From: Lachnospiraceae bacterium
GTDB taxonomy: Bacteria; Bacillota; Clostridia; Lachnospirales; Lachnospiraceae
Length of the DNA stretch: 48,489 nt
Reading direction: 5' to 3'
Assembly (NCBI GenBank): GCA_024681985.1
Contig: JAIKZU010000004.1
Coordinates: 1-48,489, forward strand
Both the position numbers and the translations under genes were made by a program. This document shows, in pieces, positions 6,229 to 48,489 of the stretch; positions within the stretch are counted from its first letter, which is position 1; every line of letters begins with the position of its first letter. Under the pieces are notes generated by a model. It was not told the origin of the DNA. It searched no databases and worked only from the letters and a program-made list of their open reading frames with translations.

Positions 6229-6246
6229 GTTGCACTATTGTTGCAG
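6229..6246 (+). promoter_or_regulatory. Direct-repeat regulatory element GTTGCAC-TATT-GTTGCAG upstream of the 6294 operon
   Basis: Two GTTGCA half-sites with 11-bp period; the longer perfect repeat is ATTGTTGCA twice. Nearly the same 18-mer occurs at 45738-45755. Confidence 0.5.
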
Positions 6247-6293
6247 GAAGTGAACTACAATCACACTGTAATTTGCTTTTGTGGAGGCAGATC

Positions 6294-7625
6294 ATGAAGC
6301 GAAAAAAAACATCTGAGGCCGTTGAATTCAAGTCGGTTTATGAAGTTCTACAGGTGGACGAGGAAACAGATCCGGAAGGATTTAGACCCTACGATGCGAA
6401 GGATTTGGTTGAAGGCATTAAAGTGTATGACTTTATGTTGAACACAGTCAACAGTGGACTGGATGATTATGTGAGGGCTTATGAAAAAGATCCCTCCGAT
6501 CGGACTACAATCCAGGCAGCGTATACTTTTAAGATAGATGTCCTGGCCGGCATGGCCAAGACCTTCCGTCCCCTTTCCGCATACGGAAGAGACCGTCTGG
6601 GAGAGGTCAAAAAATGCAGTCGGGAGTATGCGTCATTTGTGGCACCCTTGATCACAAATATCACGCCGGATAAAGCGGAGTCCTTTTCAAAAGTCCTGAC
6701 CGAGGATATGAGAGAGGACGTGGAAGTCGGCAAAGTGAAAGCTCTCGGTGCGGTTCGTTACAGAGACGGGAAACTGTACGGAGCAGGGGCCATCGTATAT
6801 AAAGTAGAATACTCGCCCATCATCGGCGGAAATGTGGGCAGGATCCTTTGGCTGTATGTGCACGAGGATTTTAGAGAACAGGGAGTCGGAGATCACCTGA
6901 TGGCCGAACTCCTGGGCAGCATGTTGGAAAACGGGATCGAACATGTCACCATTGACGGGCTCACCGGGGATGAGATCGAATTGGATCGCCTGAAGGCATA
7001 TCTCATGTCCTCCTGGATGTTCGATCTGGAGACCACGCTGAATACGGATGCGTTGATTCGGGTAGGGAATATTAAGAACCTCAGCAAGTTCAAGGATCTG
7101 GTCAAAGGTGTCAAATCCCTTTCCGAACTTAAGGACGGAGAGAATTCCAACGGAGTGAAAAACGCACTTAAGCGTATGGGACGCCCCGGCTACCTTTCCG
7201 ATAAGCTTTTAAAAACGGATTATATCGACCCTGAGCTGAGCTTTTACCTGGGCACGGAGACTACCGTTACGGCGCTCCTTTTAGCCCACAGGCTCCCTTC
7301 GGGCAAAATACGTGTGGAGTATCTGAACTCCGAAGACGGTTCCTTTGAACCACAGCAGAAACTGATCTCAGCCTTTTTCAAAAAAACGTCTATTCAATGC
7401 AGCGAAGAAACCCTGCTTTACATACCCGTTGATTCGGCAGAAAATGCGATCTTTATTGAAGAGATCTGTCCGATCCAGTTGGGACAGTACATGTTGGAGG
7501 GGCTTTTAGCTCCCCGCATCGGTTCCGATGAGGATATCGATGCAAAGATGGTGGCAGCACTGTTAGAATTTGATGAAGATGAAATAGAGGAACTGGATGG
7601 TATGATCAAGGCCGCAAAGGAATGA
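6294..7625 (+). CDS. GNAT-family acetyltransferase domain protein with additional C-terminal domain
   Basis: ILWLYVHEDFREQGVGDHLMAELL contains an RxxGxG acetyl-CoA loop (REQGVG). RBS GGAGG 6 nt before the ATG at 6294. Confidence 0.65.
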   Translation: MKRKKTSEAVEFKSVYEVLQVDEETDPEGFRPYDAKDLVEGIKVYDFMLNTVNSGLDDYVRAYEKDPSDRTTIQAAYTFKIDVLAGMAKTFRPLSAYGRDRLGEVKKCSREYASFVAPLITNITPDKAESFSKVLTEDMREDVEVGKVKALGAVRYRDGKLYGAGAIVYKVEYSPIIGGNVGRILWLYVHEDFREQGVGDHLMAELLGSMLENGIEHVTIDGLTGDEIELDRLKAYLMSSWMFDLETTLNTDALIRVGNIKNLSKFKDLVKGVKSLSELKDGENSNGVKNALKRMGRPGYLSDKLLKTDYIDPELSFYLGTETTVTALLLAHRLPSGKIRVEYLNSEDGSFEPQQKLISAFFKKTSIQCSEETLLYIPVDSAENAIFIEEICPIQLGQYMLEGLLAPRIGSDEDIDAKMVAALLEFDEDEIEELDGMIKAAKE

Positions 7626-7647: not shown

Positions 7648-8808
7648 ATGAAGGAAAAGCTGAATGAGAGCTTTATGCTGGATGAGAGTTTTATCCAGGA
7701 AGAGGAATTTGAGCAAAAGCAGGAGAACGAGTATGCGGACAATCTCCAGATGAATCTGCAAAAACAGCAGGACAATCTGCAGCAGAACGCCCAGAAGTCA
7801 GGGACACTGCAGGCAACTCCTCAGGAGATGGTAGAGCAGAAGATCAGTGATTCCTTCCCGATCACCAAGGAAAATGTCAATACGCCCGAAGGTCCCGTTC
7901 CGGTGGAACCTCAGCCTGTTGTTCTCGAAAGAAAGTATGAAGCTATACTCGGTAAACTGGATAAAGACTACAACAATGTTATGGAGACTTGGGGTTATTA
8001 TCAGAGGATGGAAGAAACCCGTGAACCTTTGAAGTTTCGCATTAAGCAATTGGAGATTGTGGATACCAACGCCAGTCGGTATACTCGTTGGAAGATTGGC
8101 TTCTTCATGAACAAGAAGAGTGAGAAATTTGCACGCTTCCAGCAGATCAGTGACATGAAGAATTTTGCGAGAGCCAAACTCAAGCAGCTCAGAGCAGAAT
8201 ATAAGATAGAGCAGGAAAAAGAAAAAGAGAATATATCCCATAAGGGAAAAATAGATTATGAATTCGTTGATCGTACGGGGGAACTGATAAACAGTCGTCC
8301 TTTACCGGCCAAAATGCTGTTTCAGCTAACCGGTGGCATTATCGCCGGATTGCAGAAACTCGGCAGGAAAATATTTGCACTTCAAGCCGATTCCAATTAT
8401 AGAGAAAACAGTTTTATTGTTAAAAAGAACGATTTTGCGGAAAAGACAAGGGATTTCCTCCTGTTAAGATTCAAGAAGGACAGCGTAGCCGCCAAGAATA
8501 AAAGGATCGAGAACGAAGACGATAGAAATGAATTAAATGACTACGGCAGTGACCAGGAATTCATGGACTACGAACAGATCTATGATACCTATGAGAGTCT
8601 TGTAAAGAACAAGGAAGTTCTTTTGGCTGAATACCAAAAGAGAAATAAAGACAGCGCAAAGATAGAGGCGCTTCAGCAGATGATCGAAAAACAGCAGGAT
8701 GAAATCGATGCCTATAACAAGAACGTGGAGGATGAGCGTTTTATCCTGACGACGAACATTTCTGATGAACTTGATCAGAAGATCAAAAAAGTAAGATTTA
8801 AAAAGTAG
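7648..8808 (+). CDS. Hypothetical Gln/Glu/Lys-rich coiled-coil protein
   Basis: Open 386-aa frame in operon context, Q-rich N-terminus and long charged helices, no recognised domain. Confidence 0.6.
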   Translation: MKEKLNESFMLDESFIQEEEFEQKQENEYADNLQMNLQKQQDNLQQNAQKSGTLQATPQEMVEQKISDSFPITKENVNTPEGPVPVEPQPVVLERKYEAILGKLDKDYNNVMETWGYYQRMEETREPLKFRIKQLEIVDTNASRYTRWKIGFFMNKKSEKFARFQQISDMKNFARAKLKQLRAEYKIEQEKEKENISHKGKIDYEFVDRTGELINSRPLPAKMLFQLTGGIIAGLQKLGRKIFALQADSNYRENSFIVKKNDFAEKTRDFLLLRFKKDSVAAKNKRIENEDDRNELNDYGSDQEFMDYEQIYDTYESLVKNKEVLLAEYQKRNKDSAKIEALQQMIEKQQDEIDAYNKNVEDERFILTTNISDELDQKIKKVRFKK

Positions 8809-8813
8809 GGATT

Positions 8814-9518
8814 ATGATTGAATTATCACATTTGAATTATGCCACCATTATTCTGGATATCAGTGCCGTTATCCTGGTATACGGAATCTTGCGGCAGACC
8901 AGGATCATGAGAAAGAGCAGGCTGGAATCGGACAGCCTGTTCTTTGGCATGTTGATACTAACGGTGGTCATGGCTTTATCCGACATCGTGGGATACATCA
9001 CCGAGGATAAACCGGGTTGGATCCTGATCAATATCCAGATCATATCCATGACCATCTTTTATATCGCTTTTATATTTTTAGCCATGCGGTGGTTTGATTA
9101 CTGCACTTTCCGGTTCCGGGACAAGGGACGGGTGAAAAAGATCGGGATGCAGCCTGCGCTGATCCCCGGAGTACTGACCTTTGGCCTCATCTTTCTCAAC
9201 CAATCCACCGGGATCATCTTTTCCGTGGATGAAGTGGGAGGATACCACCGGGAGGCTCTGTTCATTCCCATGTACATCGTGATCGTAGCTTACCTGGCCA
9301 CAGGTTTTTACTACATTGCCAGATACCGTACCAGTGATAAAAAGGTGCTGATCCCCATGTGGCTCTATGTCATGCCCATTGTGGTCAGTTCATTTATCAC
9401 CTTTGTGGTGGGAGAGGTTTCCATGGCTGCTTTGGGAACGGCCATTACCATCGCCTTTACCCACCTTGGTACCATGAACGAAGTGGCGGAGATCAGTATG
9501 AAGGAGAGTGTGCAGTGA
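8814..9518 (+). CDS. 7TM membrane protein (sensor-type, no output domain)
   Basis: About seven hydrophobic segments; resembles the N-terminal sensor half of the neighbouring 7TM proteins; ends before any GGDEF-like domain. Confidence 0.65.
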   Translation: MIELSHLNYATIILDISAVILVYGILRQTRIMRKSRLESDSLFFGMLILTVVMALSDIVGYITEDKPGWILINIQIISMTIFYIAFIFLAMRWFDYCTFRFRDKGRVKKIGMQPALIPGVLTFGLIFLNQSTGIIFSVDEVGGYHREALFIPMYIVIVAYLATGFYYIARYRTSDKKVLIPMWLYVMPIVVSSFITFVVGEVSMAALGTAITIAFTHLGTMNEVAEISMKESVQ

Positions 9519-10576
9519 TGTTTTTGGATGAGATTCATGTAACATTTTATGCGGATGTCGCTGCCGCCATGCTTTCCCTGGGTGTGCTGGTGCTTTGCAG
9601 CAGAGGCATCATCAAAGATGACTTTTTAGGTGGTCTTTTCCGTCTGCTGTTGGTGGTGTCCATTTGCCTGTCGGCCATCGATGCGGCCACCTATGCCAGG
9701 AAATATCATGAGTTTCCCGGCGCTTACCCTCTGGCCATGGGATTACAGACACTTCTGGAATTGGTCTTAAACTTTATCATATTCTTATGGCTTCTCTACG
9801 CCAACTATAAGATCTATCGCAGTCGCGACAGCATCAAGCGAAAGTTTTATCAGTTTATGATCCCTCTCTTCGTACTCATGGGAGTGGATATCATCAACGT
9901 TTTTACCGGAATCCTTTTCTACTACGACGAGCACGTGATGTATCATACCACCTGGCTTGTGATCCCATACTATTTGATCCGGTACTTTTATTTCTTTTCC
10001 ATTGTCATTCAGATCGCCCTTCACAAGAGGCATAACAGGAATCTTAAATTTTTTGACCTGGGTGGTTTTATCATACCGGTGCTGGTGGGCGGACTCGTAA
10101 CGAATTTAAGTCCCTATTCCGTTATGGCGTTAGGCTTTGCCATCGGTCTTTGCAATGAATATGCGGGCATCATTAACGAACGGAGCTTTATGGACCGACA
10201 GACGGGATACTTTAACAGATTCTATCTGAGATATTTAAAAAATGATATCGACCGGGAAGTTTTCTCCCCCAGGAGCGGCATCATTTTTCGACTGACGGAT
10301 CCGGAGGACATGGGGGATTTTGCTGAGATCCTGTCTTCCCTCCTTCCCAAGAAATGCGAGGTGATCCGTTACAACGAGGATACAGTGGTAATGCTGGCAG
10401 AGACCGCGAACAAGGGCGGCCTCCATATGATGTCGGAGGACGTGAACCTGGCAGTGGAGAAGTTTAACACAGACCATAAGGACAGAACTCTGTCGGTATC
10501 TATGGATACGATCAGCAAGAAGAAAAAAGAAACCTCCAAGGGCTTTTATGAGATGTTGATCAGAAGGATAGGGTGA
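9518..10576 (+). CDS. 7TM membrane protein with heavily degenerate GGDEF-like C-terminus
   Basis: ATG overlaps the upstream stop (TGATG). DRQTGYFNRFYLRYL corresponds to the GGDEF-domain DxLTGLxNR start; the RxGGDEF position reads VIRYNEDTVVML. Confidence 0.6.
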   Translation: MFLDEIHVTFYADVAAAMLSLGVLVLCSRGIIKDDFLGGLFRLLLVVSICLSAIDAATYARKYHEFPGAYPLAMGLQTLLELVLNFIIFLWLLYANYKIYRSRDSIKRKFYQFMIPLFVLMGVDIINVFTGILFYYDEHVMYHTTWLVIPYYLIRYFYFFSIVIQIALHKRHNRNLKFFDLGGFIIPVLVGGLVTNLSPYSVMALGFAIGLCNEYAGIINERSFMDRQTGYFNRFYLRYLKNDIDREVFSPRSGIIFRLTDPEDMGDFAEILSSLLPKKCEVIRYNEDTVVMLAETANKGGLHMMSEDVNLAVEKFNTDHKDRTLSVSMDTISKKKKETSKGFYEMLIRRIG

Positions 10577-10608: not shown

Positions 10609-11463
10609 ATGAATGTGTTTGAGATATCTGACGAGAATTTAGAAGAGTTCGCCGAGATCCTGGGCATGGACATGATGGACGACATGCAGAGGTCTTTCTA
10701 TCGTGGATACGGCACCAGTGGTGAGGACGGAAACATCAACGGTGTCCTGGTCTACGAGGTAAAGGGCCTGGAAGACGACGACCGGGATACTTTAAGCCAG
10801 ATGCTTTTGGTGAAAGCGGATAATGAGGAATCCTACGAAAAGCTCCATGAGATCTACCGGGAGGAAGGCGTGGAAGATGAGGAGATCGTGGAGACCTTTT
10901 ATGAGTTTGAGGACGCTGCCATGGCCGACTCCTGTGAGAAGGCAGGTTTTTCCAAGGGCAAAAAGGAAAGCCAGATCATCCGGCTCAAACTGAAGGACGC
11001 TTCTGCTCTCGATTTTGTCAATAAGATCAAAAAGGTACCGGACTACATCGTGGGGCTGGAAAAACTGTCGGTGACCCAATACCGAGCAGGTGTAAAGAAC
11101 TGTATCTTCAACGGACAGACCGGTATCCTGGAAGACTTAAGTTATCTTTCCATGGGATGGTTCGATACGGGGATCTCCTCCTGTACCATTACGGACGAGG
11201 AGGTAAACGGATTCTTTTTCATCCGTACCACACCTTCGGGAGTGATCGTCCCGGTACTTTTGTATGCATACGGACCCGATTACATTAAGAACCTGGCGCT
11301 TATGATCGCCCATAGTGTAAAGGAGGCGGAGAAGCGATATCCGCCGGATACCGAGATCGTCATTCATCGTGCCAGAAAAGCCTCGGCGGAGCTGACCAAA
11401 AAGCTCATGCCCCGGATCAAGGGGATGGAGGCATTCTTTGGCGAAAGAATGGAAAATAAATGA
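10609..11463 (+). CDS. Hypothetical protein, GNAT-like, possible paralogue of the 6294 product
   Basis: Similar overall layout to the 6294 product, but no RxxGxG loop visible. Confidence 0.45.
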   Translation: MNVFEISDENLEEFAEILGMDMMDDMQRSFYRGYGTSGEDGNINGVLVYEVKGLEDDDRDTLSQMLLVKADNEESYEKLHEIYREEGVEDEEIVETFYEFEDAAMADSCEKAGFSKGKKESQIIRLKLKDASALDFVNKIKKVPDYIVGLEKLSVTQYRAGVKNCIFNGQTGILEDLSYLSMGWFDTGISSCTITDEEVNGFFFIRTTPSGVIVPVLLYAYGPDYIKNLALMIAHSVKEAEKRYPPDTEIVIHRARKASAELTKKLMPRIKGMEAFFGERMENK

Positions 11464-34120: not shown

Positions 34121-34168
34121 AAGAGTTGTTTCATTTCTTTGCGTGGATGTATGAGGCGGGGTTCGACA

Positions 34169-34705
34169 GTGTATGTGCAGATAATTAGCGAAGATCCCTC
34201 TTCGCAGGAAGAAAAACAGAAGACAAAAGCGCTGTTGGCTCTGTTGAAAAAGGAACAGCCGGACTTAAGATGTGAGGTTGTTACGAAGCAGAAAGAGAAG
34301 CCCATCCGTGTACAGTGTTTCGGAGAATTCGAAGTCTTTGGACGGGAAGGTCCCGTTACCTTTAAGCGGGCCCGCACAAAGGAACTTCTGGCGGTTTTGG
34401 TATGTCATCGGGGCAGCATGCTGACCATGGGAACCATTATGTCCATCCTTTGGGAGGACGGAGAGGATTCCGATTCCGATCGCAGTTACCTGCGTACGCT
34501 GATCAGTGATCTGAAAAAGACCTTCGCCGAGAACGGCGCTGACGATACCATCATTAAAAACTATAACAGTATCGGCTTGAATACCGGCAGCATCCAGTGT
34601 GATTATTACGATTTTCTGGACGGAAAGGTAGAAGCGGTCAAAAGCTATAACGGACAGTTCATGAAACAGTATTCGTGGGCCGAATATGAGATATCTTGGA
34701 TATGA
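34169..34705 (+). CDS. Stand-alone winged-helix (OmpR/SARP-like) DNA-binding protein
   Basis: IRVQCFGEFEVFGREGPVTFKRARTKELLAVLVCHRGSMLTMGTIMSILWEDGEDSDSDRSYLRTLISDLKKTF resembles SARP-type wHTH domains. GTG 34169 has GAGGCGGGG upstream; ORF track start is TTG 34139. Confidence 0.65.
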   Translation: MYVQIISEDPSSQEEKQKTKALLALLKKEQPDLRCEVVTKQKEKPIRVQCFGEFEVFGREGPVTFKRARTKELLAVLVCHRGSMLTMGTIMSILWEDGEDSDSDRSYLRTLISDLKKTFAENGADDTIIKNYNSIGLNTGSIQCDYYDFLDGKVEAVKSYNGQFMKQYSWAEYEISWI

Positions 34706-35223: not shown

Positions 35224-37092
35224 ATGAACAATACGCAGCTGTATCCTTTTGAGAGAAACCGCTACTATCCGAGAAAGCGTATGTCCAGCGGAGACTTCAC
35301 CGCTGAGCAGACCTACATGAACAACAAACGCCGTTTCTTAAACGGTCTGATGTTTGGTTCCGGCGTGGTCTGCGGACTTGGAGTTTTCTCCCTGGATGAT
35401 CTTTCCTTCATGGTGGAAAGCGGTGTGGCCATTGATGGCATGGGTCGTGAGATCGTGGTGGAGACTTCACAGGTGAAAAAACTCTCCGCCATTGAAGGCT
35501 TCGATTCCCTGCGCACCAATCAGGTCAGCCTTTGCCTGCGCTACAAGGAAGACGATGTACACAAAGTATACTCCGTAGATCAGGACGATCCCACGGCGGA
35601 GTTCCAGTATAACCGTGTGAGAGAAGGATATACCCTGTTTTTGATCGATCAGGAAGATATCCCGGGAACCTACGACATGGAGAATGAATTCCTGTTAAGT
35701 TCCGTTCTCTATTCCAGCGCGAATTACATGGTGACCTATCGGATGCCCGCATCCGCCTGCCGCGGTCATGTGATCAAAGGGGAAGTCATCGTGGAAAAAC
35801 TCTCCGATGAGGATGTGAGCCTGACCTATTCTGCCAGACTGCAGACACCGGCCTTTTTATCCTCCGAAGGAAAGAACATCCTTCCGGTGGAGATCACGGA
35901 TCTGACCCTTAATCAGGGAGAGACCAGAGTCATCGAATACTGGATGGAGACATTGGATTCTCCCGTCAATACCACGAACATCATCATCGAAAGCGGTTCT
36001 GCCAGTGCCTTTGAAAACGACGTGGCAGCGGAGATCTTTGCCAACTTCATGATGGAGATCGTACTGACGGACTTAAAGCCCAGACAGCTTGTAAACCGTG
36101 AGATCGGCCGTATGAACCTGGAAATGAAGAACATCGGCGGACAGGGGGATTACATCCGTCTGGCTGATTTCACCCTGGTACGTACCGAGAGTGCCTACAT
36201 CATCGAGGAAGTGATAGAGACTACCGTAAAGCAGTATGTGGCAGCTCCCGCCCAGGACTTAAAGAGAGGTGATTACCTCGAGTATTTCGTAAAAGAAGCG
36301 GATATCCGTGCACCTAAGCTGGATATGAACCTTCCCCTTTTACACAGTGATTTTGCAGCTCCCGCCAAAACCGGCGGTCCCCAGATCGCTACGGGAACCT
36401 TAGAGATCCCTCTGGGTGACGACGCCAGAAAAGGCGATATCTTCTATTCCGGCGAGATCCTGCATGGATTGGGCCCCGGCAATGTTTACGTGGAAGTCGG
36501 CTACGAGATGATGTCCGACGAAGGTTTAGTGGGCTCCTCCGCAAAGAGCACCATCTACGGAAACCCGGAGATCTTCGGACATGAGGTAAATTCCGTAGTG
36601 AAGGCACAGACCGCAGTGCGCGTCTTAAACGACAAGGGAAGCTTTGTGGTGGGCGCAAAGATCTTAGACACCGTGGATTACCTGATCCTGACCTATCGCT
36701 GGGTTGCCATCCGCTTCCAGTCCGGAGAGGACTTAGAGCAGGATGTGGACGTCACCGGCATCAGTATTTCACCCGAGATGCCTACCGTTCGCATGTTGAC
36801 AAAGGAAAGCCATTACTTCGGCGTTCGCTTCGAGGGTACGGCACCCGTATCCGTCTCCTACGAACTGACGGAGGAGAACGCCGGCGATATCACGGCGGAC
36901 GGCGTATATACTGCGCCTGCCAAAGCCGGTGTATATGAGATCCGTATCTACTGCACCGATATGCCCAAGGTATGTACCTACGCCTATGCGGTGGTGGAGA
37001 AGAAGGGTATGGAAGACACTGCCGAAGATCCGAAGATCGCAGAAAAGTTGGGACTTTCCCAGGGCACAAATCTCGGTAACGTAATCAAATAA
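35224..37092 (+). CDS. Phage-tail/contractile-injection-associated-like protein of unknown function, Ig-like C-terminus
   Basis: LYPFERNRYYPRKRMSSGDFTAEQTYMNNKRRFLNGLMFGSGVVCGLGV resembles the N-terminal signature (E-R-x-x-Y-F...DF..EQ.Y...K.R..N...G.GVVCGL) of proteins in contractile tail-like loci; C-terminal DITADGVYTAPAKAGVYEIR is Ig-like. Confidence 0.55.
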   Translation: MNNTQLYPFERNRYYPRKRMSSGDFTAEQTYMNNKRRFLNGLMFGSGVVCGLGVFSLDDLSFMVESGVAIDGMGREIVVETSQVKKLSAIEGFDSLRTNQVSLCLRYKEDDVHKVYSVDQDDPTAEFQYNRVREGYTLFLIDQEDIPGTYDMENEFLLSSVLYSSANYMVTYRMPASACRGHVIKGEVIVEKLSDEDVSLTYSARLQTPAFLSSEGKNILPVEITDLTLNQGETRVIEYWMETLDSPVNTTNIIIESGSASAFENDVAAEIFANFMMEIVLTDLKPRQLVNREIGRMNLEMKNIGGQGDYIRLADFTLVRTESAYIIEEVIETTVKQYVAAPAQDLKRGDYLEYFVKEADIRAPKLDMNLPLLHSDFAAPAKTGGPQIATGTLEIPLGDDARKGDIFYSGEILHGLGPGNVYVEVGYEMMSDEGLVGSSAKSTIYGNPEIFGHEVNSVVKAQTAVRVLNDKGSFVVGAKILDTVDYLILTYRWVAIRFQSGEDLEQDVDVTGISISPEMPTVRMLTKESHYFGVRFEGTAPVSVSYELTEENAGDITADGVYTAPAKAGVYEIRIYCTDMPKVCTYAYAVVEKKGMEDTAEDPKIAEKLGLSQGTNLGNVIK

Positions 37093-41702: not shown

Positions 41703-41732
41703 CGGATACGTTATGAATGAATAGGTTAACTG

Positions 41733-41775
41733 CACATCCATTTTCCTGTGAGAAAATGGATGTGTTGCTTTTATG
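41733..41775 (+). terminator. Perfect 13-bp hairpin plus T-rich tract between the MORN gene and the ABC exporter
   Basis: CACATCCATTTTC-ctgtga-GAAAATGGATGTG followed by TTGCTTTTATG. Confidence 0.7.
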
Positions 41776-41812
41776 TGAGGGAAAGAACCCTTTTTTGAAA
41801 AAGAGGAGGTCA

Positions 41813-43990
41813 ATGCCCCGAATGTCAGAAAACCCCCGGATCAAAAATAAAGGCGTGGCGAAGGTTCCTGTGATCATGCAGATGGAAAGCAGGGAATGCG
41901 GAGCGGCGTGCCTGTCTATGGTGTTGGCCTATTACGGCAGGTGGGTGCCTTTGGAGCAGATGCGCAGGGAGTGCGGTGTTTCAAGAAGCGGTGTCAGTGC
42001 CGGCTCCATCCTCCGGGTTGCCAGGGATCACGGCTGTGAAGCAAAGGGCTACACCTTAGAGACAAAGAATCTGCGTGCGTGCATACACTTTCCCTGCATC
42101 ATTCATTGGGAGTACGAGCATTTTGCAGTGCTCTGCGGCTTTAAGGGAAAGCACGCCGTGCTCATCAATCCCCGGAAGGGCATGATCCGACTGGACTTAG
42201 AGACTTTTGAAAAAAACTTTTCCGGTCTGTGCCTGGATATTTATCCCGGTAGGGATTTTCAAAAGGCAGGGAGCAGACACAGTGTCTTTTCTTTTATCAA
42301 AGACAGACTAAAGACCATGATACCGGCGGTTTCCGTACTGACGGTGGTGATGGTATTAAATTCCCTTTTCGGTTACATCGATCCCCGGATCAATCAACGA
42401 TTTTTGGATACGGTTCTGACTGCAGGAAGCGCGGAGAGACTTTATGCTTTTATCCGTCTGGCAGCACTCATAGCTTTTCTGGAGATCTGTGTGGCTTTTG
42501 CCCAGCGGATCTTTCGACTGCTGATCTCCGGCACCCTCTTCGAAAGGGAGAGCACTTCTTTCATGAAAACGCTGATGAGTCTTCCAGAGCGGTTTTACGA
42601 CCAACGGAGATCCACGGAGCTTCTTGGGCGGTTTTCCCGCAGTACCAATGTCTCTTTGGCCATTGTCAATACCTTTGCGCCTCTTTTGGTACAGTCGGTG
42701 ATGATGGTTTTCTTTCTCACGGTAATGGTACGATCCTCTTTGCTTTTGTCGGCAGTGGGACTTTGCACCGTGATCATTAATCTAGCAGTCACCCGATGGA
42801 TGGCACAACGGCGAACGGAATACGCCAGGGTGATGATCAACGATACCTCGAAGCTTAACAGCGCCACCGTTACGGGGATCGAGATGATGGAGACCCTGCG
42901 GGCTTCCGGGGCGGAAGAAGGATATCTAAAGCGCTGGAAGGGCTACCAAAAGGATATGTTTGACCGGCAGAGCGAGTTCGCAAAAAAGGATCTGTTCCTT
43001 TCCGTATGGCCTGCCTACCTTTCCGTGTTTGCCAATTATCTGGTGATGATCATCGGTGTGTACTTAACCATGCAAGGCAGCTTTACCTTGGGACTGATGA
43101 CTGCCTTCGGCGGTTATCTGTCTGCATTTTTCATGCCGGCCAATACCCTGATCGACACCGGAAAGAACATCTTTGAGATGCGGGTGGACATGGAACGCAT
43201 CCGGGATGTAACGGATTACCCGAAGGATCCGTTTCTGGAAGAAAAAACGGGACGATATAACGGAAGGCTTTCGGGAGAGGCGAGCCTTACAAGTGTCAGT
43301 TTTTCCTATGACAAAGGAGACGACCCGGCGGTAGCGGAGGTTTCATTGCGGATCACCCCCGGAAAGCGGATCGCCCTGGTGGGAAAGAGCGGCTGCGGAA
43401 AGACCACTCTGCTAAAACTTATGACGGGGATCTATCAGCCGGATGCCGGAGACATCACCTATGACGGTCATGCCCTTTTGGATATTTCCCATAAAGCTTA
43501 TACGGACAGCGTTGCCATCGTATCCCAGGACACCCGTCTTTTTGATGAGAGCATCTTGGAAAATATCCGTCTCTGGGACGAGAGCATTCCCGAAAAAAAG
43601 GTGGAGGAGGCGGCAAAAGCGGCAGCCATCCATGAAGAGATCCTGACCATGGAGGGAGGATATGCGCATCGTCTCTCAGATCGGGGATATAACCTTTCCG
43701 GAGGACAGCGGCAGCGGATAGAAATTGCCCGGGCTTTGGCAAAGGATCCGGCTCTCTTGCTTCTGGATGAAGCCACTTCAGCTTTGGATGCCCGGACGGA
43801 AAAGCAGATATTCGATTCTGTAAAAGAGAGAAAAATCGCCTGTATCATCGTATCCCATCGCATATCCGCCGTTAGGGATTGTGATGAGATCCTGGTGATG
43901 GAAAAAGGAAGAATCGTTGCCCGGGGAGCGCATGCAGCCCTTTTGGACAACTGTGAAGCATACAAAGAACTGATCGCCGATGAATCATAG
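41813..43990 (+). CDS. Peptidase-containing ABC exporter (C39 peptidase + TMD + NBD; NHLM/PCAT-type)
   Basis: VIMQMESRECGAACLSMVLAYYGRW, HWEYEHFAVLCGF; GKSGCGKTTLLK, LSGGQRQR, LLLDEATSALD. Start placed after RBS GAGGAGG. Confidence 0.9.
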   Translation: MPRMSENPRIKNKGVAKVPVIMQMESRECGAACLSMVLAYYGRWVPLEQMRRECGVSRSGVSAGSILRVARDHGCEAKGYTLETKNLRACIHFPCIIHWEYEHFAVLCGFKGKHAVLINPRKGMIRLDLETFEKNFSGLCLDIYPGRDFQKAGSRHSVFSFIKDRLKTMIPAVSVLTVVMVLNSLFGYIDPRINQRFLDTVLTAGSAERLYAFIRLAALIAFLEICVAFAQRIFRLLISGTLFERESTSFMKTLMSLPERFYDQRRSTELLGRFSRSTNVSLAIVNTFAPLLVQSVMMVFFLTVMVRSSLLLSAVGLCTVIINLAVTRWMAQRRTEYARVMINDTSKLNSATVTGIEMMETLRASGAEEGYLKRWKGYQKDMFDRQSEFAKKDLFLSVWPAYLSVFANYLVMIIGVYLTMQGSFTLGLMTAFGGYLSAFFMPANTLIDTGKNIFEMRVDMERIRDVTDYPKDPFLEEKTGRYNGRLSGEASLTSVSFSYDKGDDPAVAEVSLRITPGKRIALVGKSGCGKTTLLKLMTGIYQPDAGDITYDGHALLDISHKAYTDSVAIVSQDTRLFDESILENIRLWDESIPEKKVEEAAKAAAIHEEILTMEGGYAHRLSDRGYNLSGGQRQRIEIARALAKDPALLLLDEATSALDARTEKQIFDSVKERKIACIIVSHRISAVRDCDEILVMEKGRIVARGAHAALLDNCEAYKELIADES

Positions 43991-45737: not shown

Positions 45738-45755
45738 GTTGCACTTGTGTTGCAG
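45738..45755 (+). promoter_or_regulatory. Direct-repeat regulatory element GTTGCAC-TTGT-GTTGCAG upstream of the leader-peptide gene
   Basis: Same architecture and 16/18 identity to 6229-6246; 11-bp period. Confidence 0.5.
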
Positions 45756-45798
45756 TGGCTGTGATAGGATGTGCATAGAATTAAGGAGGAGAAGTGCC

Positions 45799-46134
45799 AT
45801 GAAACAGATGGAGCGCTATATTAAAACCTTAACCCCCGAATTGCAGGCAAAGATGCGGGGGGCAAATACCGTAGAGGATGTCTTTCGTATAGCCCGACAG
45901 GAAAACATGGAACTTCCCGAGGAAGCGTTGGATTCCATATACGGTGGTTGCGGCACTTCCTATACATGGAAATACGAAGAATACTATAAATGCAGGATCT
46001 GTGACAGCAAGGTCAGCTTAAAGTCTGTGGGACATGATGGATTTCCCGATGTGTACTATTGCCCGAACTGCCTGACCACAAAGGACGAGACCGAGGTATA
46101 CCACTTCAGCCGCTCGTGGCAGGAGATCAAGTAA
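45799..46134 (+). CDS. Nif11-like double-glycine leader peptide precursor with Cys4 (CxxC...CxxC) zinc-ribbon-like core
   Basis: Leader MKQMERYIKTLTPELQAKMRGANTVEDVFRIARQENMELPEEALDSIYGG, then 61-aa core CGTSYTWKYEEYYKCRICDSK...VYYCPNCLTTK...; RBS AAGGAGGA 8 nt before ATG. Confidence 0.75.
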   Translation: MKQMERYIKTLTPELQAKMRGANTVEDVFRIARQENMELPEEALDSIYGGCGTSYTWKYEEYYKCRICDSKVSLKSVGHDGFPDVYYCPNCLTTKDETEVYHFSRSWQEIK

Positions 46135-46164: not shown

Positions 46165-48489
46165 TTGAAACATATGGGTTTTGGAAAAATATATAAGCGG
46201 ATCATCAGCATTATGCTTGCAGTTGCGCTGCTCTCGGGCAGCTTTTCTTCGACTTCATACGCAGCGGTGACCATTTCCCACAGTGAAAAGTCTACGAGCC
46301 TGGATCTTTTAATGGAAGTTGCTTCCGCAAACCTGGCCGTCTATGGTATGCAAACCACCAAAGAAAATGTTAAAAAAGCTCTTTTGGCAGCAGGCTATGA
46401 ACATGATCTTTTGCTCATCAGCGAAGACGAACGGGAGTCTTTTGAGGCATCTCTCACGGGATGGATCACTGTCGACAGTGACACAGAAGAGGATTCAGAG
46501 ATACCTCCCGCTAAGGTGGATCAGATTACTTCTGTTACCATTAACGATATCATCAATAAGCTGGTGGATCAGTACAATACCGCAAACGGTTGGGATATTG
46601 CGACAAAAGAACCCTTGCAGATCACTGATCCGGAGACGGGGAAGGTATCCCAGGGTTCCACCACAGCCAAGTATGTCACCTTTGATGCGGCCAAGGGATT
46701 ATCCTATGCCGGTTCGGTGCTGACCACCGGATATACCTACGGGGGGATGATGGTTGAGTATGTCCGTGAGAAGGATCCTTCCGTCAGAGTCATGTATAAC
46801 GACGATATCCTTTCGGCCATCAAGGAAAAAGTGACCACGGACACACCGGACGCCTCCATGTCGGATATCCTTTCTGCCGTACATGAGCAGGCACAGCTTG
46901 TCAGAGATACATATTCCAGCGGCACGGACAAGGACTACATAACCGAGTTTTTAGGCAAGCATGCCGTGACATATTTTGAATACACCGATGGCGGAGTCGA
47001 CGAAAGCAAGGTCCCGGCGGGAACCCTTTTTATCGGGACTTTTCTCATCGATGCCCAGACGGTAAATGACGTGTATTACCGTTACGCAAAGGACAGCATG
47101 GGCATGGCGAACCAGCCCATCATGTATTACAAATCCGAACTGGATGAAGGTCACTGGAAAGATATCGTTTCCGCAGTGGGACTGACGGATATCCTGCCTG
47201 CATCCGCCAACGTGGAAACTGCTGATCTGATGCGCCGCAACATCACCTGCGTCATCGGAAGTGACGGTATTCCCAGATACCCGGATGACGGAACGGAAGC
47301 GGATATCTTTACCATGTCAAATCCCTACGACATGGCGCAGGTACCGGAACTTTTACCTCTAAAGACACTTTTGGATTCCGGTGCCGTAAGCCAGAATACT
47401 TCCGATATATCCAACCGCTATGCGGCAGATGCGTTGTTCCGTTTTTTTAATTATGACGGATGCGGCGATAACGATTCCATGATGATCATCAGGAACAAAG
47501 CTTATCGGGATTATCTTTACGACCATTCGGATGCGGAGACCATCAAAAAAACCACCGGACCCAATCCCATCAAGCGGGCGGTGCCGGTAAACATCACACA
47601 GGAAGAGATGGATTACATCGTTTCCATGACCACACAGCAGTTAAAGCTGGAGTGTAACATGCCCCAGTGCGAGGATAAATACGCAGGGCACGGAGATGCT
47701 TTTTATGATCAGATCCTTGCCTGGGCAGAGTACTACGGGAACGATAAGTTCAAGATCAATAATACCTACGGTGGGAACGTATCCCATCCCTACATCTTTC
47801 CCATTGAGGATATGGCAGCCTCCGAATGGGAATTGGATAACCGGAGAGCCGATTGGAAGAACCCCCAGAGTTATATGATCATCATCAACGGCAAGATCGG
47901 AACCGATGATCAGAAAGCTTTTGTTGACAGATGGCTGAAAGACAGCACATATTTGGCTCCGGACAATATAACCTATACAATGAGCGGACAGTTTGCTGCC
48001 AATCACGGTGATAACATCAACGATATGTTTTACGCCTATACCGGGCTGAACTATTGGGGCGGAGATACTTCAACAAAATTCGAACTAGGCAGTAAATGGA
48101 ATGAGTTCTCCATCATGATCTACCACTTCATGGATTGGATGCGAAATATGTACGACATCCGAGACGAGGAAACGGATAAGACAGACCAGACTTTACGGGA
48201 ATTAAATGCGCTCTATCGTCAGAAGAGAGATATCGCAAATACAGTAGATGAAGAGGAAGAAGGAGAGGATGAGGAAAGCGAAGAAGCCAAAGCAGCCAGA
48301 GCAGCCAGAGCTACGGCCAGGGAAAATGCCAAGAACGAAGCAGATACGCTGATGCGGCTCATGAGCCGTGTGGATGCCACCCGGCGGGCTCGGATCTATT
48401 ACAACCTGGTCTACAATGAAAAGAATAACTACATCGTGGGACCCACGCTGCCCTACTTATTAAACCTTTTGGAAAACGGTATCGGCCCC
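46165..48489 (+). CDS. Large signal-peptide-bearing exported protein of unknown function (3' truncated by window edge)
   Basis: TTG start with GAGGAG RBS; (M)KHMGFGKIYKRIISIMLAVALLSGSFSSTSYAAVT signal peptide; open to the window end (775 codons). Not in the ORF track, presumably because no stop is reached. Confidence 0.75.
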   Translation, partial: MKHMGFGKIYKRIISIMLAVALLSGSFSSTSYAAVTISHSEKSTSLDLLMEVASANLAVYGMQTTKENVKKALLAAGYEHDLLLISEDERESFEASLTGWITVDSDTEEDSEIPPAKVDQITSVTINDIINKLVDQYNTANGWDIATKEPLQITDPETGKVSQGSTTAKYVTFDAAKGLSYAGSVLTTGYTYGGMMVEYVREKDPSVRVMYNDDILSAIKEKVTTDTPDASMSDILSAVHEQAQLVRDTYSSGTDKDYITEFLGKHAVTYFEYTDGGVDESKVPAGTLFIGTFLIDAQTVNDVYYRYAKDSMGMANQPIMYYKSELDEGHWKDIVSAVGLTDILPASANVETADLMRRNITCVIGSDGIPRYPDDGTEADIFTMSNPYDMAQVPELLPLKTLLDSGAVSQNTSDISNRYAADALFRFFNYDGCGDNDSMMIIRNKAYRDYLYDHSDAETIKKTTGPNPIKRAVPVNITQEEMDYIVSMTTQQLKLECNMPQCEDKYAGHGDAFYDQILAWAEYYGNDKFKINNTYGGNVSHPYIFPIEDMAASEWELDNRRADWKNPQSYMIIINGKIGTDDQKAFVDRWLKDSTYLAPDNITYTMSGQFAANHGDNINDMFYAYTGLNYWGGDTSTKFELGSKWNEFSIMIYHFMDWMRNMYDIRDEETDKTDQTLRELNALYRQKRDIANTVDEEEEGEDEESEEAKAARAARATARENAKNEADTLMRLMSRVDATRRARIYYNLVYNEKNNYIVGPTLPYLLNLLENGIGP

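What the first reader, a model, noticed from the sequence alone, without database searches (positions are those of the whole stretch)
6229..6246. Shared 18-bp direct-repeat element links the 6.3 kb signalling operon with the leader-peptide gene 39 kb away
Seen: GTTGCAC-TATT-GTTGCAG at 6229-6246 and GTTGCAC-TTGT-GTTGCAG at 45738-45755, both intergenic, same strand and 11-bp period. In both cases a -10-like hexamer begins 9 nt after the second half-site (TACAAT at 6256, TAGGAT at 45765). Two readings: (a) a direct-repeat operator for a helical-phase-binding activator, of which LytTR-type sites are one precedent; (b) a near sigma-54 -24/-12 promoter (TTGCAC-N5-TTGCA against the consensus TGGCAC-N5-TTGCA, one mismatch in the GG). 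Either reading would put the sensor cluster and the exported peptide in one regulon.
Basis: partly seen in the sequence, partly recalled or inferred. Interest (0 to 1): 0.72.

Follow-up and report, generated by a model that had tools for sequence, protein, structure and literature searches.

The report
Shared operator of an injection-system regulon
The two matching 18-base elements are promoter-linked binding sites, repeated at about six places in this gut bacterium's genome and in its relatives, most likely for a small regulator of the Streptomyces antibiotic regulator (SARP) type encoded between them, which would switch on a phage-tail-like injection machine, an exported peptide and their partner genes together.

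Summary
GTTGCAC-N4-GTTGCAG occurs exactly twice in the 2.24 Mb genome, both times intergenic and in this window. A looser form with the -10 included, TTGC-N6-RTTGCA-N10-TANNAT, has 5 sites in this genome and 17 more in three of seven congeners; reversed controls give 0. It is absent from the four congeners that lack a close orthologue of window gene 34151-34705, a short winged-helix protein whose model best matches the SARPs AfsR and EmbR. The geometry (direct repeat, 11-bp period, 8-9 bp before a -10) is that of SARP operators. Among 80 loci picked only by relatives of that regulator, a perfect heptad repeat with a -10 lies just downstream of the gene in 12 loci at period 11 and in 0-1 at every other period from 8 to 19. 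Regulated genes include contractile-injection-system parts, a Nif11-like peptide behind an NHLM-type exporter, GNAT proteins and large proteins of unknown function. The one-regulon idea is therefore supported. The sigma-54 reading is not: no rpoN was found in eight congeners and the -24 GG is never present. The LytTR reading is not either. Binding itself is inferred, not shown.

The parts
6229..6246 (+). Operator 1: heptads GTTGCAC / GTTGCAG, 4-bp spacer (11-bp period)
   Evidence: consensus
6256..6261 (+). -10 element TACAAT of operator-1 promoter
   Evidence: Fixed N10 after the second TTGCA in 23/23 genus sites
6294..7625 (+). GNAT-domain protein, first gene of operon 1
   Evidence: PF00583 E 2.5e-7; G007 homologue (34% id) also preceded by the element
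7648..8808 (+). Protein of unknown function, operon 1
   Evidence: No Pfam match; co-directional, 22 nt downstream
8814..9518 (+). Predicted membrane protein, operon 1
   Evidence: no significant family; similar protein directly under the element in G002
9521..10576 (+). Predicted membrane signalling protein, operon 1
   Evidence: no Pfam; homologue in the element-driven G002 operon
10609..11463 (+). Protein of unknown function, operon 1
   Evidence: Homologues in G002/G007 clusters
34151..34705 (+). Candidate regulator: short SARP/OmpR-type winged-helix protein without receiver domain
   Evidence: PF00486 E 5.5e-7; AF2 pLDDT 90.8; best structural matches EmbR and AfsR; orthologue only in motif-bearing congeners
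35224..37092 (+). CIS13-like contractile-injection-system protein, near the regulator
   Evidence: NF053767 E 6.3e-24, below the curated cut-off
41717..43990 (+). Peptidase-C39 NHLM-type peptide exporter
   Evidence: TIGR03796 E 3e-218, below the curated cut-off; PF03412
43980..45719 (+). Second NHLM-type ABC exporter subunit
   Evidence: TIGR03797 E 2e-126, below the curated cut-off
45738..45755 (+). Operator 2: heptads GTTGCAC / GTTGCAG, 4-bp spacer
45765..45770 (+). -10 element TAGGAT of operator-2 promoter
45799..46134 (+). Nif11-like double-glycine leader with Cys-rich core peptide
   Evidence: G007 homologue (52% id) matches PF07862 E 0.001, below cut-off, and carries the element upstream
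46174..48489 (+). Large predicted exported protein, next gene; runs off the contig into G000:C116, then Pvc16_N gene
   Evidence: Pvc16_N

Best explanation
Each 18-bp element is the two-heptad operator of a SARP-like (OmpR-type winged helix) activator. Two protomers bind side by side on the 11-bp direct repeat in the -35 region, 8-9 bp before a sigma-A -10, and recruit polymerase to a promoter with no usable -35. The binder in this genome is most likely the receiver-less protein encoded at 34151-34705, inside the injection-system cluster. It would switch on together the contractile-injection-system locus, the Nif11-like exported peptide and dispersed operons of GNAT proteins and large proteins of unknown function. 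Shown computationally: the element, its geometry, its conservation, and its association with this regulator family. Inferred: binding, activation, and which paralogue binds.
For: Fixed architecture in 23 genus sites. Phylogenetic match: element in G000, G002, G006, G007 and absent in G001, G003, G004, G005, the same split as the >60%-identical regulator orthologue. Loci chosen only by regulator similarity: 15 TTGC-N7-TTGC-N11-TANNAT hits in 1.23 Mb against 0 in controls, mostly right after the regulator stop codon. General perfect-heptad test downstream of the gene: 12 loci at period 11, 0-1 at other periods. G022 has the element on both sides of a regulator-family gene and G128 just after one. 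Reverse test in 391 class genomes: only two hits outside this genome, with identical sequence; one is at the same place as in the contig fetched as L175, next to the regulator gene, and the other lies at a contig end. The AF2 model ranks EmbR and AfsR first by Z, 13.5-14.2 over 130-133 residues, against 10.6 or less for PhoB-type domains. SARP operators are direct repeats 11 bp apart with the 3' repeat 8 bp from the -10 (PMC10936776). Close relatives with helix SNLRNLIsDLKkTL carry the same half-site.
Against: No binding, transcription or start-site data. G002, G006 and G007 hold further paralogues of the family, and G000 at least one more full-length one (C156), which could bind instead. No BTAD domain by Pfam in any of 20 members. 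The element is not directly upstream of the regulator gene in the window. All genus genomes are incomplete MAGs, and the 4-versus-4 split could follow one clade. The specificity correlations are modest (p 0.005 and 0.03).
Confidence: 0.76

Rival explanations
1. The element is the operator of a different member of the same family (a receiver-bearing REC-wHTH paralogue, such as the G000:C156 gene or the 201-203 aa short paralogues), and 34151-34705 has another target.
For: Several paralogues per genome; one short paralogue sits in the GNAT/large-protein loci in G002, G006 and G007; full-length relatives elsewhere stand beside the same half-site.
Against: Only the 34151 orthologue tracks the element across all eight congeners. 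Its recognition-helix core matches those next to GTTGCA sites; the C156 paralogue and the C25/C139 gene have different helices.
Confidence: 0.18
2. Sigma-54 -24/-12 promoters.
For: TTGCAC-N5-TTGCA is one mismatch from the -24/-12 consensus.
Against: No Sigma54_CBD gene in 8/8 genus genomes nor in G009, G128, G166, although the same search rings in E. coli and B. subtilis. T in 23/23 sites where the GG requires G, and a sigma-A -10 at fixed spacing.
Confidence: 0.01
3. LytTR-type operator.
For: LytTR sites are also direct repeats and contain GTT; LytTR genes exist in the genus.
Against: 11-bp period; LytTR gene number runs opposite to the element; the element is linked to SARP-like genes instead.
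Confidence: 0.03
4. Chance resemblance of two intergenic sequences.
For: A loose window-only scan finds no excess.
Against:: large excess over controls, fixed spacing, conserved before orthologues.
Confidence: 0.01

Closest known systems
SARP regulators and their operators (AfsR/afs box; EmbR fold)
   Same: Two direct repeats with 11-bp period, 3' repeat about 8 bp from the -10, overlapping the -35 region (PMC10936776); wHTH fold, top structural matches.
   Different: No BTAD domain detected; half-site GTTGCA instead of the afs box; Clostridia rather than actinomycetes; targets are an injection-system regulon rather than antibiotic genes.
OmpR/PhoB-family response regulators (pho box)
   Same: Winged helix PF00486; 7+4 bp direct repeat replacing the -35 (pho-box geometry from general knowledge); full-length relatives here have receiver domains.
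   Different: The window protein has no recognisable receiver; its model is closer to EmbR/AfsR than to PhoB.
BTAD or GerE regulators next to extracellular contractile injection systems (Geller et al. 2021, PMC8213781)
   Same: That survey lists BTAD as an eCIS shell domain and proposes adjacent BTAD or GerE genes as regulators.
   Different: No operator is given in the passages read; the present regulon reaches unlinked loci and includes an NHLM-exported peptide.

Membership tests
SARP family regulator | OmpR-type winged-helix DNA-binding domain | tested here: met
   PF00486 E 5.5e-7; EmbR Z 14.2, AfsR Z 13.5-13.8
SARP family regulator | Bacterial transcriptional activation domain (BTAD, PF03704) | tested here: not met
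   Not matched in any of 20 family members at E 0.1; residues up to 184 still align with EmbR/AfsR beyond the wHTH
SARP family regulator | Direct repeats 11 bp apart, 3' repeat 8 bp from the -10 | tested here: met
   definition from PMC10936776
OmpR/PhoB response regulator | Receiver domain plus Trans_reg_C | tested here: not met
   Window protein: Trans_reg_C only. In alignment A1, 14/20 members match Response_reg and 14/20 match Trans_reg_C
Sigma-54 promoter | GG at -24 and an rpoN gene | tested here: not met
   T instead of G in 23/23; no Sigma54_CBD in 8 genus genomes
LytTR regulon | About 9-bp repeats one per two helical turns, bound by a LytTR protein | tested here: not met
   Period 11 bp; LytTR genes do not track the element
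Extracellular contractile injection system (regulated locus) | Sheath, tube, AAA ATPase and Pvc16-type genes | tested here: met
   G006: sheath, tube; AAA on another contig. G000: Pvc16_N C116, sheath C40; CIS13-like in window. Not found in G002 (incomplete)
Any of these | Protein-DNA binding and promoter activation | not testable with these tools
   Needs experiments

The most novel reading that the evidence does not exclude
A receiver-less SARP-like protein is the master activator of an injection-system regulon in rumen Lachnospiraceae, and its signal input is carried by separate proteins: a lone pseudo-receiver and a membrane HATPase that lie in an element-driven operon (in G002 together with the regulator). 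That would be a split, self-reinforcing two-component-like switch.
Probability: 0.35. Interest if true: 0.75.

Novelty: new variant of a known kind. Interest (0 to 1): 0.62.

Why it matters
Geller et al. describe the signals that activate or repress eCIS regulators as unknown. This gives a concrete operator, a candidate regulator and a target list that can be tested at once. It also offers a rule (heptad direct repeat, 11-bp period, just downstream of the regulator gene) for finding the targets of a large, widespread regulator family in Clostridia and other gut lineages; no description of that operator was found in the papers searched.

Tried and rejected
Sigma-54 and LytTR readings. Chance. 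The loose 3-mismatch window scan was uninformative. Own-genome single-mismatch hits were mostly inside coding sequence and dismissed. In the family scan many hits are one conserved coding sequence, TTGCAGAAGAATTGCAG..., and were dismissed. Paper searches for this regulator family in Clostridium with direct repeats and for injection systems in Lachnospiraceae gave nothing relevant. NCBIfam gave no specific name for the regulator.

Full report
The observation. GTTGCAC-N4-GTTGCAG occurs nowhere else in the 2.24 Mb assembly and the reversed pattern does not occur at all. Loosening the pattern and adding the -10 (TTGC-N6-RTTGCA-N10-TANNAT) gave five sites in this genome, none in the control; one further site has a single mismatch. 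The same pattern gave 6, 3 and 8 sites in congeners G002, G006 and G007, and none in G001, G003, G004 and G005. Aligned, 23 genus sites show T-GTTGCA-N-T-N-TT-GTTGCA-N10-TAnnAT with a partial extended -10. The sites lie before genes on the same strand; the few that overlap a listed reading frame do so only at the start of that frame, where the true start codon probably lies further in.

Conservation at orthologues. The element is kept upstream of the G007 homologues of both window genes: the Nif11-like peptide (52% identity) and the GNAT protein (34%). It is also kept upstream of a large exported protein in G000, G002 and G007, and of a sensor operon in G002, G006 and G007.

Which regulator. 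The period of 11 bp and the 8-9 bp distance to the -10 are the published SARP operator geometry (PMC10936776) and also fit OmpR-type sites. The window encodes one such protein at 34151-34705: Trans_reg_C (PF00486, E 5.5e-7), no receiver. Its AlphaFold model (pLDDT 90.8) matches EmbR (Z 14.2) and AfsR (Z 13.5-13.8) best, ahead of PhoB-type domains (10.6 or less, over about 90 residues). Orthologues with 61-66% identity exist only in the motif-bearing congeners; the other four have only a 36-37% identical full-length relative.

Independent tests of the link. I fetched 80 loci from the public genome collection by similarity to the regulator alone. In 1.23 Mb, TTGC-N7-TTGC-N11-TANNAT occurs 15 times against 0 in controls, mostly within about 150 bp after the regulator stop codon. 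Asking only for any perfect 7-bp direct repeat followed by a -10 in the 260 bp downstream, period 11 appears in 12 loci and every other period from 8 to 19 in at most one. Half-sites differ between lineages (TTGCAC, TTGCGG, GATGTGC, TGTTATA, TGTCAC), as expected if specificity drifts while geometry stays. In unselected family genomes, G022 has the element on both sides of a regulator-family gene and G128 just after one. In 391 class genomes a strict form was found in only two genomes other than this one, with identical sequence. One of them has the same contig number and position as the locus fetched as L175, where the element lies beside the regulator gene; the other is at a contig end. Regulators nearer in sequence to the window protein are more often next to TTGC sites (p 0.005), and the recognition-helix core agrees, modestly (p 0.03).

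What is regulated. The peptide gene follows an exporter pair whose best family matches are the NHLM peptidase/permease models (TIGR03796, TIGR03797), with a peptidase C39 domain in the first. A CIS13-family match (NF053767, E 6e-24) lies next to the regulator. The window contig continues into C116, where Pvc16_N follows; a sheath gene is on C40. In G006 the element precedes the Pvc16_N gene, followed by sheath and tube genes; an AAA ATPase gene lies near another element. Other targets are operons of GNAT proteins and large proteins with no known domain. In three congeners a membrane HATPase protein lies under the element, with a pseudo-receiver gene before it where read (G002, G007), and in G002 the regulator gene follows in the same direction, which suggests positive feedback.

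Rejected readings. Sigma-54: no rpoN in the genus and no GG at -24. LytTR: wrong period and opposite distribution.

Limits. No binding or transcript data exist. The genomes are incomplete MAGs, so absences are soft and the four-to-four split may be one clade. Paralogues could be the real binder. BTAD was not detected, so I call the protein SARP-like rather than a SARP. Geller et al. (PMC8213781) list BTAD among eCIS-associated domains, which fits.

Noticed in passing
window 45799-46134: Nif11-like double-glycine leader followed by a core with two Cys pairs resembling a zinc ribbon (CRIC...CPNC), next to NHLM-type exporters; an unusual exported peptide.
   Followed up: partly
L133 3086-3433 and 2115-3065; L135 4068-5024: Lone degenerate receiver (115 aa) and membrane HATPase_c protein in an element-driven operon of congeners.
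   Followed up: partly
L127, L128, L131, L135: Repeated pairs of a GNAT-domain gene and a large (900-2100 aa) protein with no known domain, candidate injection-system partners.
   Followed up: partly
L190 and L203 upstream of the regulator gene: TGTTGGA-N4-TGTTGGA repeats with the same geometry upstream of a different subgroup of the regulator family; possible autoregulation.
   Followed up: no
G000:C102:21-52: TTGGAC-N5-TTGGAG-N10-TAAAAT, a possible operator of a paralogue in this genome.
   Followed up: no
L221 10495-10600 (Clostridioides difficile HC132): GATGTGC-TTTA-GATGTGC with a TATATT -10 just after a family regulator gene and before a 779-aa predicted sensor gene.
   Followed up: no
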